The position numbers and the translations under genes were made by a program. Source: Acidimicrobiaceae bacterium (lineage in GTDB: Bacteria > Actinomycetota > Acidimicrobiia > Acidimicrobiales > UBA8190). From it: a stretch of 7,342 nt of DNA. This document shows, one piece after another, positions 1,594-4,122 of this stretch (position 1 is its first letter; every line of letters starts with the position of its first letter). Below the pieces are notes generated by a model. The model had not been told where the DNA came from. It made no database searches and saw only the letters and a program-made list of their open reading frames with translations. The stretch is from assembly GCA_003131945.1 (NCBI GenBank), contig PKWD01000107.1:212-7553 (forward strand), written 5' to 3'.

Positions 1594-1647
1594 ATACGTA
1601 GCGTGCCCGGCTGTGGCTCTCAGACGATCTACGGCCCGGGACAGTGC

Positions 1648-1971
1648 ATGGCGACCTTCGCCCGGGTGCTGACGTTCCACCTGCCCTCCGAGCAGATCAC
1701 GTCGCTGCTCGAGATCTTTGACGAGAGGCTTGCCCCCCGCTACGCGAGCCACCCGGCCTTCGGTGGCCTGCTGTGTCTCGAGTTGCGTGAGGGTTCGAGC
1801 CGGAGCCAGATCTACGTCGTGTCCTTGTGGGACGACACCTTGGTCAAGGATTCCACCGACATCGCTGATCGGTGGTGGGACGACGCCTCCGAAGTCCTCG
1901 GTATCGGGATCGCGCGCCACCGGTGCCGGGTCCTGAGAGACATCCCGGGCCATACTCCGGACGGATCGTGA
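1648..1971 (+). CDS. Small ABM-like (dimeric alpha/beta-barrel) protein
   Basis: A 107-residue protein beginning MATFARVLTFHLPSEQ. The opening beta-strand (ARVLTFHL), a following amphipathic helix (EQITSLLEIFDERLAPRYASHPAF), then a strand pair (GGLLCLELREG, SQIYVVSLWDD) and a second helix match the layout of antibiotic-biosynthesis-monooxygenase-like small proteins, which form homodimeric ferredoxin-like barrels. The family includes quinone-forming monooxygenases, haem-degrading enzymes and many proteins of unknown substrate. No diagnostic catalytic residue can be named here. The frame can be extended to a GTG at 1603, but the added residues (PGCGSQTIYGPGQC) do not look like family sequence and there is no ribosome site there, so ATG 1648 is preferred. 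It diverges from the LysR gene across 104 bp containing a palindrome, so regulation by that LysR protein is plausible. Confidence 0.68.
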   Translation: MATFARVLTFHLPSEQITSLLEIFDERLAPRYASHPAFGGLLCLELREGSSRSQIYVVSLWDDTLVKDSTDIADRWWDDASEVLGIGIARHRCRVLRDIPGHTPDGS

Positions 1972-2235: not shown

Positions 2236-2266
2236 GATAGGGAGTCAGCTACACAGACAGGGAGTC
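2236..2266. repeat. 11-bp direct repeat bracketing the stop codon of the ClpP-like gene
   Basis: GATAGGGAGTC (2236-2246) and GACAGGGAGTC (2256-2266) are identical at 10 of 11 positions and spaced exactly 20 bp. The stop codon of the minus-strand ClpP-like gene (2249-2251) falls between the copies. It could be a small slipped duplication at the 3' end of the gene. It is not long enough to rule out chance. Confidence 0.3.
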
Positions 2267-2806
2267 GGCGTAGCCCAGGGCGATGGCGCTGGGGGCGTCG
2301 AGGTACCCGCCCCGGCCCCATTCCTCTTCGATCTCGATCTCCGGCCGTCCGGTGCGCTCGGCCAGGAGGCGCTGGAACTCGGCCTGGAGGGCGCTCTGGG
2401 CGTCGACCGTCCTGGTGATGTCCGACGGTCGACCCGACGCCGTGGTGTCGGGGTGGCGGAGGTGCAACCGGGCGTGCGGAGCGATGGACCGGTTCGACCC
2501 GGCGGCCAGGACGCCGACGGCGCCACCCCCGACGATGCCGAGGGCGACGGTGTGCACGGGCACGCCGAGGACGTCGATGACATCGATGAGCACACCGGCC
2601 GCCTCCCACGACGCCATCGGCGCCTGCAGTCGCAGTTCGACGTGCTCGTCACCCAGGGCGTCGAGGGTCAGGAGGGCGGCCGCCGTCTCCGACGCCTTGT
2701 CACTGGTGAGATCACCGTGGACGAAGACGATGCGGCGGGCGAACAGCGAGGAGAGCACCTGATCGCCGAAGCCGGGCAGGATCGACACCTCAGCCCCCGC
2801 CGCCAC
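2249..2806 (-). CDS. ClpP-fold protein with all three catalytic positions replaced (ClpR-like pseudoprotease)
   Basis: This 185-residue protein aligns along its length with the ClpP peptidase: LFARRIVFVHGDL corresponds to the ClpP strand LLKERIVFLG, VHTVALGIVGGGAVGVLAAG to the STICIGMAASMGAFLLAAG nucleophile segment, APHARLHLRHP to LPNSRIMIHQP, and GYLDAPSAIALGYADSL to the C-terminal FMSAEEAKEYGLIDEV. By this hand alignment the catalytic Ser is Gly94, the catalytic His is Arg117 (the next residue is His) and the catalytic Asp is Glu162. The SPGG oxyanion loop has become APMA (residues 62-65). The N-terminal axial-loop motif SL(I/V)PMVI is also missing. Length and hydrophobic pattern are kept and the frame is clean, so it looks like a maintained non-catalytic subunit and not a decaying gene. 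It overlaps the end of the XRE gene by 17 bp if it starts at GTG 2806. An alternative GTG at 2786-2788 sits just after that gene's TGA behind a G-rich stretch. Either arrangement implies translational coupling. It may mix with the ClpP encoded divergently. Confidence 0.85.
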   Translation of the reverse strand: MAAGAEVSILPGFGDQVLSSLFARRIVFVHGDLTSDKASETAAALLTLDALGDEHVELRLQAPMASWEAAGVLIDVIDVLGVPVHTVALGIVGGGAVGVLAAGSNRSIAPHARLHLRHPDTTASGRPSDITRTVDAQSALQAEFQRLLAERTGRPEIEIEEEWGRGGYLDAPSAIALGYADSLSV

Positions 2807-3053
2807 CGAGGTGCCAGTCGAGCACCTCGTCGACCGCCGCCGCGTAACGCTCGAGCGTGGAAAGACGCACGTCGACCTGGCCTGTCTCCAAGCGGGCCAC
2901 GGCTGACTGCGAGGTCCCCATGCGGGCCGCCACCTCGGTCTGCGACAGCCCCAGAGAGATCCGCCGCTCGACCAGCTCCTCGGCCAGGGCCCGCCGGCGG
3001 GCCGCCATCTCGGCGAAGCCAGGCAGTTTCGGTTCGTGCCGACGTTCGTTCAT
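2790..3053 (-). CDS. XRE-family helix-turn-helix regulator
   Basis: An 87-residue protein made almost entirely of one Cro/C1-type DNA-binding domain. The five-helix domain runs from about residue 27 to 80, with the helix-turn-helix LGLSQTEVAARMGTSQSAVARL at about 34-55 and the closing helix LSTLERYAAAV. A charged N-terminal helix (MAARRRALAEELVERR) precedes it, and the C-terminus is a short WHLGGGGG tail. There is no effector or sensor domain. The ATG at 3051-3053 is the natural start. The gene is followed with overlap by the ClpP-like gene and diverges from the active ClpP gene, so it probably represses one or both transcripts through the AT-rich palindromes at 3061-3086. There is precedent: actinobacterial clp genes are controlled by XRE-type regulators such as ClgR and PopR in Streptomyces. 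This one is much smaller than a two-domain regulator. A HigA-like antitoxin role is less likely, because no toxin is adjacent. Confidence 0.9.
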   Translation of the reverse strand: MNERRHEPKLPGFAEMAARRRALAEELVERRISLGLSQTEVAARMGTSQSAVARLETGQVDVRLSTLERYAAAVDEVLDWHLGGGGG

Positions 3054-3060
3054 TACGTCA

Positions 3061-3086
3061 GATATGATATCTCATATGAGAGATAC
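3061..3086. promoter_or_regulatory. AT-rich nested palindromes: divergent promoter and candidate XRE operator
   Basis: This short AT-rich island in GC-rich DNA lies between the XRE gene (ATG ends at 3053, minus) and ClpP (GTG 3123, plus). It holds three overlapping symmetries: GATATGATATC (3061-3071, odd palindrome), TCTCATATGAGA (3070-3081, perfect 12-bp palindrome) and TATCTC-N6-GAGATA (3068-3085). TATGAT at 3063-3068 matches the -10 consensus at five of six positions for plus-strand transcription. No good -35 box lies 17 bp upstream of it. On the minus strand, TATCAT (3069-3064) could serve the XRE gene with a very short leader. A dimer bound to these palindromes would cover both start regions, which fits autoregulation plus control of clpP. 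The binding is inferred. Confidence 0.6.
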
Positions 3087-3108
3087 CTGCGATGGGGCTC
3101 TCGCTGAC

Positions 3109-3114
3109 GAGAGG
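3109..3114 (+). promoter_or_regulatory. Ribosome binding site that decides the clpP start
   Basis: GAGAGG ends at 3114 and is 8 nt from the GTG at 3123-3125. The same frame also contains GTG at 3114 and 3117 and an ATG at 3147. The first two are too close to the site, and the ATG would remove the conserved SLIPMVI axial-loop segment, so GTG 3123 is chosen. Confidence 0.55.
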
Positions 3115-3122
3115 TGGTGCGC

Positions 3123-3797
3123 GTGCTCAGTCAATCTCTGATCCCCATGGTGATCGACCAGACGGCCCGGGGGGACCGCTCCTTCGACATCTATTCATTG
3201 TTGCTCAAGGAGCGGATCGTCTTTCTCGGCCAGGAGGTCGACGACCAGATCGCCAACCTTCTCGTGGCCGAGATCCTCTACCTCGACGCCGAGAACCCTG
3301 ATCGCGACATCGCCATGTACATCAACTCTCCCGGCGGCATGGCCTACGCCGGCATGGCCATCTACGACGTCATGCAGCACGTCCACTGCGACGTCTCCAC
3401 CATCTGCGTCGGCATGGGGATGTCGGCGGCGGCCATGATCCTGGCCGGTGGCGCCCCCGGCAAGCGTTTCGCCCTGCCCAATTCGAAGATCATGATCCAT
3501 CAGGGCTCCGCCGGCACCCGCGGTGCACCGAGTGACATGGCCATCCATCTGAAGGAGGTCCTGGCCACCACCAAGCGCATGGCCGAGATCATCGCCTTCC
3601 ACTCCGGCCAGTCCGTCGAGCGGGTCGAGCGAGACATCGACCGCGACTACTTCATGACCCCCGACGAGGCCAAGGTGTACGGCGTCATCGACGAGATCAT
3701 CGCCCCCACCCGGGGCCTGTGCGCCCCCCGCCCGGGCTCCGAGGAGGCCGGGGGAACGGTCGACGGACAACGCGAGCTCTCCGGTGCCAGCGCCTGA
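3123..3797 (+). CDS. clpP: ATP-dependent Clp protease proteolytic subunit ClpP
   Basis: ClpP is the serine peptidase that forms a double heptameric barrel and degrades proteins unfolded by ClpX or ClpC ATPases in the cytoplasm. The 224-residue product has the full family signature: axial loop SLIPMVIDQTARGDRSFDIY, strand LLKERIVFLG, oxyanion loop NSPGG (68-72), nucleophile Ser101 in CVGMGMSAAA, His126 in KIMIHQ, and Asp171 in ERDIDRDYFM. The nucleophile segment GMGMSAAA differs from the common GMAASMGA but keeps the Ser. The chain continues about 30 residues past the usual end (after VIDEIIAP) with a Pro/Gly/Ser/Glu-rich tail ending GASA. It is transcribed away from the XRE and ClpR-like genes and overlaps the downstream zinc-ribbon gene by 14 bp. 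No ClpX or ClpC gene is nearby, so it must use an ATPase encoded elsewhere. Its pairing with a pseudoprotease suggests an accessory ClpP, not necessarily the housekeeping copy. Confidence 0.95.
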   Translation: MLSQSLIPMVIDQTARGDRSFDIYSLLLKERIVFLGQEVDDQIANLLVAEILYLDAENPDRDIAMYINSPGGMAYAGMAIYDVMQHVHCDVSTICVGMGMSAAAMILAGGAPGKRFALPNSKIMIHQGSAGTRGAPSDMAIHLKEVLATTKRMAEIIAFHSGQSVERVERDIDRDYFMTPDEAKVYGVIDEIIAPTRGLCAPRPGSEEAGGTVDGQRELSGASA

Positions 3798-4122
3798 GCG
3801 TCGACGCCCGGCGCGTCGTCGCCCGAGCCGCCTGCGTTGCGAGACCTGCCTCGACGTGCTCACCCTCCGCCACGCCTGGGACGTCGCCAGCTGCAGCTGT
3901 GGGGCACTGACGCTGTCCGGTCGTCCGACCAGGCCCGTCGTCCACTGGTTGAGTCGCCCCGGCGGAGGGTGGACGGACCTCCGCTCCGAAGCGGTGGACG
4001 ACCGGTCGGCACCGGATGCCACGCCGGCGGACGCGACACCGGCGGACGCGTCACCGGCAGAGGGGTCACCGGCGCGCCGGATCGGGTTCGCGCCGACGCC
4101 GACGCCGACGGCGGCGGTCTGA
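3784..4122 (+). CDS. Small zinc-ribbon protein (DUF7695-like) with a Pro/Ala repeat tail
   Basis: A 112-residue product starts at GTG 3784 inside the clpP 3' end (14-bp overlap), a layout typical of translational coupling. After a basic N-terminus (ERRRPARRRPSRLR) comes a four-cysteine knuckle with Cys19 and Cys22 (CETC) and Cys37 and Cys39 (CSC), spaced CxxC-N14-CxC. The pattern CxxCxDVLxxxHxxDxxxCxCGA closely resembles small zinc-ribbon proteins annotated as DUF7695, whose consensus I recall as CxxCxxxIxSxxxHDFxxCxC; the assignment is from memory. The conserved part ends near GGGWTDLRS (residue 68). The rest is low complexity: a pentapeptide repeat of the TPADA/SPAEG type (about 80-96) and PTPTPT near the end. 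The role is unknown. A zinc ribbon next to ClpP could be an adaptor, as zinc-binding domains in ClpX and in some adaptors bind partners, but that is conjecture. The gene converges on the phosphoesterase gene. Confidence 0.65.
   Translation: MPAPERRRPARRRPSRLRCETCLDVLTLRHAWDVASCSCGALTLSGRPTRPVVHWLSRPGGGWTDLRSEAVDDRSAPDATPADATPADASPAEGSPARRIGFAPTPTPTAAV
4021..4080 (+). repeat. 15-bp tandem repeat encoding TPADA/SPAEG
   Basis: Four 15-bp units follow each other: acgccggcggacgcg, acaccggcggacgcg, tcaccggcagagggg and tcaccggcgcgccgg. The first two differ by one base and later units diverge progressively. In the zinc-ribbon frame they encode TPADA, TPADA, SPAEG and SPARR. The unit length is a multiple of three, so copy changes keep the frame. 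A second micro-repeat, GCCGAC three times, follows at 4092-4109 (residues PTPTPT). Confidence 0.75.

What the first reader, a model, noticed from the sequence alone, without database searches (positions are those of the whole stretch)
2249..3797. Active ClpP paired with a ClpP homologue that has lost the whole catalytic triad
The minus-strand ClpP-fold protein has Gly94, Arg117 and Glu162 where ClpP has Ser, His and Asp, and APMA in place of the SPGG oxyanion loop. It nevertheless keeps family length, an intact frame and the surrounding fold motifs. The divergent neighbour keeps Ser101, His126 and Asp171. Non-catalytic ClpR subunits are established in cyanobacteria, plastids and apicomplexans, where they co-assemble with ClpP. 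An actinobacterial pair with its own XRE regulator would be a separate instance, possibly a mixed barrel with altered axial pores or partner binding.
Basis: partly seen in the sequence, partly recalled or inferred. Interest (0 to 1): 0.72.

Follow-up and report, generated by a model that had tools for sequence, protein, structure and literature searches.

The report
Dead ClpP twin beside active ClpP
In a group of actinobacteria, an active protein-shredding enzyme subunit (ClpP) is encoded back to back with a long-conserved, catalytically dead copy of itself that has also lost its docking sites and sometimes carries an imitation of the motor protein's docking peptide, which suggests a built-in regulator of the shredder.

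Summary
The minus-strand ClpP-fold protein (PSE) has Gly94 at the Ser position, Arg117 at His and Gly166 (not Glu162) at Asp. It is not a decaying gene: in 28 module loci the Ser column is Gly in 28 and none keeps His or Asp. PSEs form one clade, their active partners (ACT) another. ACT and PSE are divergent in 26 of 26 loci where ACT is visible, with XRE between in 25. A further feature, the operator TATCTC-N6-GAGATA (3068-3085), lies upstream of ACT in 22 of 26 loci at no more than 1 mismatch, 0 of 2600 shuffles. PSE also lost most of the pocket that receives Clp ATPases and the N-terminal axial segment. Ten of 28 module PSEs carry a C-terminal [ILVMF]G[FY] tail resembling the ClpX loop of these genomes. 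The window's PSE lacks it, but a small zinc-ribbon-like protein encoded after ACT carries [ILF]G[FY], as do 15 of 15 aligned members. Best reading: a regulatory pseudoprotease subunit, ClpR-like in principle, with pocket-ligand mimicry; I found no description of it. Complex formation is untested.

The parts
2249..2806 (-). PSE, catalytically dead ClpP-fold protein; G94, R117, G166 at the Ser, His, Asp columns. Start may be the GTG at 2806 or, by comparison with the 179-aa L001 protein, the GTG at 2788
2790..3053 (-). XRE (HTH_3) regulator, same direction as PSE and overlapping or abutting it; identical over 85 aligned residues in L001
3068..3085 (.). conserved inverted repeat TATCTC-N6-GAGATA between XRE and ACT, presumed XRE operator
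3114..3797 (+). ACT, active ClpP; S104, H129, D178 counted from 3114; start probably further in, e.g. GTG 3123
3784..4122 (+). small zinc-ribbon-like protein (24.8 bits to DUF7695, cut-off 25) overlapping the end of ACT by 14 nt; folded N-terminal part, low-confidence linker
4081..4089 (+). Ile-Gly-Phe tripeptide in the low-confidence tail of the zinc-ribbon-like protein, resembling the Clp ATPase docking loop

Best explanation
This is a conserved two-subunit accessory Clp module. ACT is by sequence a working ClpP serine peptidase. PSE is a pseudoprotease of the same fold that has lost the triad, most of the hydrophobic pocket for ATPase IGF/LGF loops, and the N-terminal axial segment. Both are probably controlled by the XRE protein through one shared operator (site shown by conservation, binding inferred). 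I think PSE acts as a regulatory subunit of ACT: it assembles with ACT in a heteromeric core or stacks on it, so that the particle has fewer active sites and faces that cannot be capped by ClpX or ClpC. Where the C-terminal [ILVMF]GF tail is present, I infer that it lies in neighbouring ACT (or housekeeping ClpP) pockets, displacing the ATPase or imitating its docking. In the window's lineage I infer that the zinc-ribbon-like protein supplies that docking peptide in trans. Shown: loss patterns, module conservation, operator, tails, selection against change. Inferred: complex formation, pocket binding, transcriptional control and effect on proteolysis.
For: Triad loss in 28 of 28 module PSEs; among listed homologues, Gly at the Ser column in 115 of 121 rows (120 listed of 150, plus the query) and in 120 of 120 (listed of 471), Asp at the Asp column in none. 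PSE rows one group (100/100) and ACT rows one group (100/99) in a 122-row tree. Divergent ACT / XRE-PSE order in 26 of 26 loci with ACT visible, XRE between in 25. In 395 class genomes, clear PSE in 6 and ACT orthologue in 8, including all 6. Operator at no more than 1 mismatch in 22 of 26 loci, 0 of 2600 shuffles; exact match in 5 of 7 genomes, in each only at the module. Pocket: Tyr62 column is Arg in 108 of 120 (first set), Gln or Arg in 105 of 120 (second set), and not Tyr in 25 of 28 module PSEs; ACT keeps Tyr62 and Leu48 in 24 of 24. Tail [ILVMF]GF in 111 of 120 of the second set, shuffles 3.7%; ClpX loops found in 6 of 7 of these genomes: GRKGIGFRAEVR three times, GRAGIGFRAEVR, GRKGMGFRAEVR, GRSGVGFTADV. 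Geometry from print: ClpP C-termini cover the pockets in apo Streptomyces ClpP1P2 (PMC11005422, passages); (L/I/V)-G-(F/L) tripeptides bind ClpP pockets (PMC8745299, passages).
Against: No interaction data and no multimer model. The tail is absent in 18 of 28 module PSEs, including the window's, and from the last 30 residues of 120 of 120 window-type homologues, so it cannot be the universal mechanism. The 111 of 120 figure comes from a search seeded with a tailed protein. ACT's own pocket is altered (Phe82 to His in 23 of 24), so its affinity for such peptides is uncertain. Two genomes (G350, G356) have an ACT-like ClpP and no XRE or PSE in the roughly 1.4 kb read on each side. The inter-ring Asp/Arg pair (role recalled) is poorly kept in PSE, which could mean that it does not stack on ACT in the usual way. 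PSE branches are long, so its one-group result could be helped by long-branch attraction. L116-L118 lack a good operator, and G235 and G802 have no exact one.
Confidence: 0.55

Rival explanations
1. PSE is a plain ClpR-like structural subunit of a mixed ACT/PSE barrel; the tail and the zinc-ribbon peptide are lineage-specific extras of little importance.
For: PSE and ACT are paired in every locus where both can be seen, ACT keeps its triad in 24 of 24, and 18 of 28 module PSEs lack the tail. ClpR precedents exist in cyanobacteria, plastids and apicoplasts (PMC7966870, passages).
Against: Pocket and axial segment are lost as well as catalysis, more than a passive filler seems to need; Gly and Phe of the tail are at least 90% conserved in a 37-row family-B alignment after a variable linker.
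Confidence: 0.25
2. PSE and/or the zinc-ribbon protein protect ClpP against pocket-binding natural products of the acyldepsipeptide type, by filling or replacing pockets.
For: An accessory ClpP gives self-resistance in the acyldepsipeptide producer Streptomyces hawaiiensis (PMC12607617, abstract); PSE lacks most of the pocket and ACT has Phe82 to His.
Against: I noticed no obvious biosynthetic cluster among the open frames listed around seven loci, but these were not annotated systematically. Host sensitivity is unknown.
Confidence: 0.08
3. PSE no longer assembles with ClpP: it is a re-used ClpP fold acting alone, for example as a sensor or partner of the XRE regulator.
For: PSE is in the same direction as XRE and overlaps or abuts it; ring-sensor residues are poorly conserved.
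Against: In L119 no XRE is detected, while ACT, PSE and an exact operator remain.
Confidence: 0.1
4. A decaying duplicate gene.
For: The triad is gone; the distant pair has pN/pS 0.68.
Against: Open frames, pN/pS 0.26 for the close pair, conserved replacement motifs, and two sets of 120 inspected homologues with the same losses.
Confidence: 0.02

Closest known systems
ClpR of cyanobacteria, plastids and apicoplasts
   Same: ClpP homologue without catalytic triad that works beside active ClpP (PMC7966870, passages)
   Different: PSE forms its own group in a tree that held no ClpR sequences and scores 40.9 bits against a cut-off of 263 for NF009204, which I recall as the cyanobacterial ClpR-type model; dedicated XRE and operator; pocket mostly lost; IGF-like tail in some members. 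I know of no IGF-like tail in ClpR and did not test it
ClpP1P2 of Mycobacterium and Streptomyces
   Same: Actinobacterial two-ClpP core; ATPases dock on one face; C-termini lie over the pockets in the Streptomyces structure (PMC4416901, PMC11005422, passages)
   Different: Both subunits there are active (recalled); here one lacks all three catalytic residues
ClpP-ADEP of Streptomyces hawaiiensis
   Same: Accessory ClpP that changes assembly and activity of other ClpPs (PMC12607617, abstract)
   Different: Different organism; whether that subunit is active, and any kinship to ACT or PSE, was not checked
IGF/LGF loops of ClpX and ClpC
   Same: Tripeptide and flanks resemble PSE tails and the zinc-ribbon tail
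   Different: Sits in the C-terminal tail of a pseudoprotease or of a small protein, with no ATPase domain

Membership tests
ClpP fold (Pfam CLP_protease) | Match above gathering score and ClpP fold | tested here: met
   70.3 bits vs 20.2; pLDDT 93.3; the 50 listed PDB matches are ClpP, TM about 0.9
Active ClpP peptidase | Ser-His-Asp triad in PSE | tested here: not met
   G/R/G in the window; none of 28 module PSEs has Ser, His or Asp at the Ser, His and Asp column respectively
Active ClpP peptidase | Ser-His-Asp triad in ACT | tested here: met
   24 of 24
ClpR (cyanobacterial, plastid, apicoplast) | No catalytic triad in a ClpP-fold subunit | tested here: met
ClpR (cyanobacterial, plastid, apicoplast) | Descent from the same ClpR lineage | tested here: inconclusive
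   All listed NCBIfam Clp models are below their cut-offs for PSE; no ClpR sequences could be put in the tree
ClpR (cyanobacterial, plastid, apicoplast) | Co-assembly with an active ClpP | not testable with these tools
   No multimer prediction and no experiment available
Clp ATPase pocket ligand (IGF/LGF) | (L/I/V)-G-(F/L)-type tripeptide in a flexible segment | tested here: met
   Met, counting M and F first and Y last, in 10 of 28 module PSEs, 111 of 120 second-set homologues and 15 of 15 zinc-ribbon-like proteins including the window's. Not met in the window's own PSE
Clp ATPase pocket ligand (IGF/LGF) | Binding to a ClpP pocket | not testable with these tools
   Needs a binding assay or structure

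The most novel reading that the evidence does not exclude
A pseudoprotease that imitates the ATPase: a dead ClpP subunit without the docking pocket presents an IGF-type peptide to the pockets of active ClpP, so that a ClpP-fold protein, or in the window's lineage a small zinc-ribbon adaptor, takes the ATPase's docking place and gates or redirects proteolysis without ATP.
Probability: 0.33. Interest if true: 0.87.

Novelty: new variant of a known kind. Interest (0 to 1): 0.72.

Why it matters
It adds what looks like a lineage of conserved non-catalytic ClpP subunits in actinobacteria, in a compact module that can be expressed in a laboratory strain. Loss of most known ATPase contacts, together with gain of the ATPase's docking peptide in many members, makes a sharp, testable prediction about how ClpP pockets can be controlled from inside the core or by a small adaptor, and the same pockets are an antibiotic target.

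Tried and rejected
Decay: rejected. Defence system: no PADLOC match up to E 0.1 for PSE, ACT or the zinc-ribbon-like protein; XRE has 14 matches there, most of them HTH or control proteins. Phage head-maturation protease: only weak PHROG matches, E 0.0025 and 0.0061. Members elsewhere in the phylum: 36 of 396 genomes passed 1e-33 with family-B alignment A2; besides G001, 9 loci of 9 genomes were inspected (L090-L098, 10 ClpP frames) and all keep Ser, His and Asp; the other 26 were not inspected. Zinc-ribbon fold search: nothing with E under 0.001. Strict either/or between PSE tail and zinc-ribbon protein: no locus has both, but flanks are short, L042, L105 and L112 show nothing after ACT, and relatives in L115-L118 show no such tripeptide in the part visible, so it is a lead only. 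The ZN hits printed for L107 and L119 were judged spurious, because the frames shown hold no zinc-ribbon motif. Tail counts: a laxer pattern gave 12 of 28; two of these (L116, L118) are the LGY of the ClpP core and were set to 'no tail' by hand, leaving 10; one of the 10 (L112) is VGY, not GF. The pattern used for the first set was narrower; one search repeats it on the last 30 residues, 0 of 120 (1 of 120 in the last 45). Sigma-70 promoter scan: nothing. Biopython dN/dS failed and was replaced by my own count. ACT pocket residues against PSE tail: position 112 differs between groups, but kinship explains it as well. In one search a shuffle that failed to keep dinucleotides fell back on single bases.

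Literature: the ten searches listed no paper on this pair by title or start of abstract; two searches returned nothing at all; the library holds only open-licence papers.

Full report
1. Observation. The window holds an active ClpP (ACT, 3114-3797 plus), a divergent XRE gene (2790-3053 minus) and, directly after it, a ClpP-fold protein without triad (PSE, 2249-2806 minus). PSE matches CLP_protease at 70.3 bits and models as ClpP at pLDDT 93.3. The Ser, His and Asp columns hold Gly94, Arg117 and Gly166. The statement that all three are lost is right.

2. It is a family. A search with the window PSE gave 150 proteins, 120 listed. In 121 rows (these plus the query) the Ser column is Gly in 115, the His column Arg in 104 and His in 5, and the Asp column is never Asp. 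A search with the PSE of locus L041 gave 471 proteins, 120 listed: Gly at Ser in 120 of 120, no His, no Asp. The unlisted hits were not seen. New motifs stand at the former active site (GQAxGPAVG, LRLxEP, GRF), which argues for selection on a new role. Window against L001 gives pN/pS 0.26 for PSE, 0.23 for ACT, 0.015 for XRE and 0.51 for the zinc-ribbon protein; window against L002 gives 0.68 for PSE and 0.27 for ACT.

3. It is a module. Loci were gathered; counting each genome once there are 28, including the window. ACT is visible in 26; L042 and L105 end too soon (for G172, whose PSE is L042, the ACT lies at the end of another contig with the start of an XRE beside it). In 26 of 26 ACT and PSE are divergent; XRE lies between them in 25 and is not detected in L119. 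In a draw of 395 genomes of the class, clear PSEs (E at most 1.1e-47) occur in 6 and ACT orthologues (71% identity or more) in 8, including all 6; at most 8 candidates per genome were scored, so some PSEs may be missed. A seventh triad-less ClpP, in G265, has no ACT orthologue at this level. The ACT-type ClpPs of G350 and G356 have no XRE or PSE in the flanks read. In a draw of 298 genomes of the order of G378, 29 pass 1e-36, one of them the G265 protein; G756, G797 and G923 were not inspected. In 396 genomes drawn from the phylum, 36 pass 1e-33; of the ten inspected only G001 holds a PSE. The two named records are Acidimicrobiaceae and Acidimicrobiales bacteria. In a 122-row tree the 78 PSE rows form one group (100/100) and the 25 ACT rows another (100/99); PSE branches are long.

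4. Shared operator. TATCTC-N6-GAGATA lies at 3068-3085. Within 260 bases before ACT it occurs with no mismatch in 8 of 26 loci and with at most 1 in 22 of 26, against 0 of 2600 shuffled regions; L116-L118 have no good site. An exact match was found in 5 of 7 whole genomes, at one place each and that at the module; G235 and G802 had none; the control (pattern read backwards) occurred at one place, in G235. XRE binding is inferred.

5. What PSE has lost besides catalysis. At the pocket residues that receive Clp ATPase loops (Tyr60, Tyr62, Phe82 in E. coli mature numbering; compare PMC4416901, passages) module PSEs have mostly Glu/Gln/His/Thr, Arg/His/Gln and Leu/Val; Tyr62 survives in 3 of 28 (L040, L102, L110). 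The N-terminal axial segment is missing in most window-type PSEs and replaced by unrelated sequence in the others; the inter-ring Asp/Arg pair is poorly kept (its role is recalled). ACT keeps the triad, Leu48 and Tyr62 in 24 of 24, but has His for Phe82 in 23 of 24.

6. What many PSEs have gained. In the second homologue set 111 of 120 have [ILVMF]GF in the last 30 residues, shuffles 3.7%, within a PGRxIGFxPR-like pattern after a variable linker. That search was seeded with a tailed protein. Among the 28 module PSEs, 10 have a tail (one of them VGY) and 18 do not; 0 of 120 window-type homologues have one in the last 30 residues. ClpX loops were found in 6 of 7 of these genomes: GRKGIGFRAEVR in three, GRAGIGFRAEVR, GRKGMGFRAEVR and GRSGVGFTADV. 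None of 24 ACT tails has the tripeptide.

7. The window's own lineage. A 112-residue protein overlaps the end of ACT by 14 nt. Its N-terminal 70 residues are modelled with good confidence, then comes a low-confidence linker and the IGF tripeptide at 4081-4089. All 15 aligned members (13 homologues, L001 and the window) have [ILF]-G-[FY] near the end, in a P-x-R-x-[ILF]-G-[FY] context (Trp for Arg in P0252), 1 to 28 residues before the last residue; shuffles 1.7%. Calling it a zinc ribbon rests on its CxxC and CxC motifs and a near-threshold DUF7695 match. No locus has both this protein and a tailed PSE, but flanks are short and more distant relatives in L115-L118 show no such tripeptide.

8. 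Mechanism. Active ClpP plus a dead ClpP without docking pocket, apparently under one operator, points to regulation of ACT by PSE. In apo Streptomyces ClpP1P2 the C-termini cover the hydrophobic clefts and are expelled by ligand (PMC11005422, passages), so a C-terminal tail is in the right place to fill a pocket. I infer that tailed PSEs fill neighbouring pockets, and that in the window's lineage the zinc-ribbon-like protein does so in trans. Whether this blocks ATPases or activates ACT is open. Assembly, binding and effect are not shown.

9. Known kinds. ClpR is the closest concept (PMC7966870, passages). PSE is ClpR-like in working principle; descent from ClpR was neither shown nor excluded. 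I therefore call it a new variant of a known kind. The papers were seen as passages (PMC7966870, PMC4416901, PMC8745299, PMC11005422, PMC10490939) or as abstract and outline (PMC12607617). A comparative paper on acidophile proteostasis that includes Acidimicrobiia has no occurrence of ClpR in its held main text (PMC10490939).

Noticed in passing
L056 (G356), ACT-like ClpP, end of frame 1444-2121: An ACT-like ClpP without neighbouring PSE whose own C-terminal tail contains RRGLGF; it may carry the docking tripeptide itself.
   Followed up: no
L055 (G350) and L056 (G356): ACT-type ClpP at 71% identity with no XRE or PSE detected in the roughly 1.4 kb on each side.
   Followed up: partly
L023 (G389): Two adjacent ClpP genes, one with Ser97 and Asp171 replaced by Ala but His and pocket residues Tyr62 and Phe82 kept; another ClpR-like pair.
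   Followed up: no
L016 / L045 (G265): A third type of triad-less ClpP (Gly, Arg, Gly) without tail, in a genome with no ACT orthologue detected.
   Followed up: partly
L119 (G820): ACT and PSE directly divergent with no XRE detected, yet an exact operator copy remains.
   Followed up: partly
ACT C-termini in module loci: ACT tails share P-x-R-G-[VLI] shortly after the ClpP core (23 of 24); function unknown.
   Followed up: no
window 1603-1971 (+): 122-aa open frame with no Pfam match up to E 1, function unknown.
   Followed up: no
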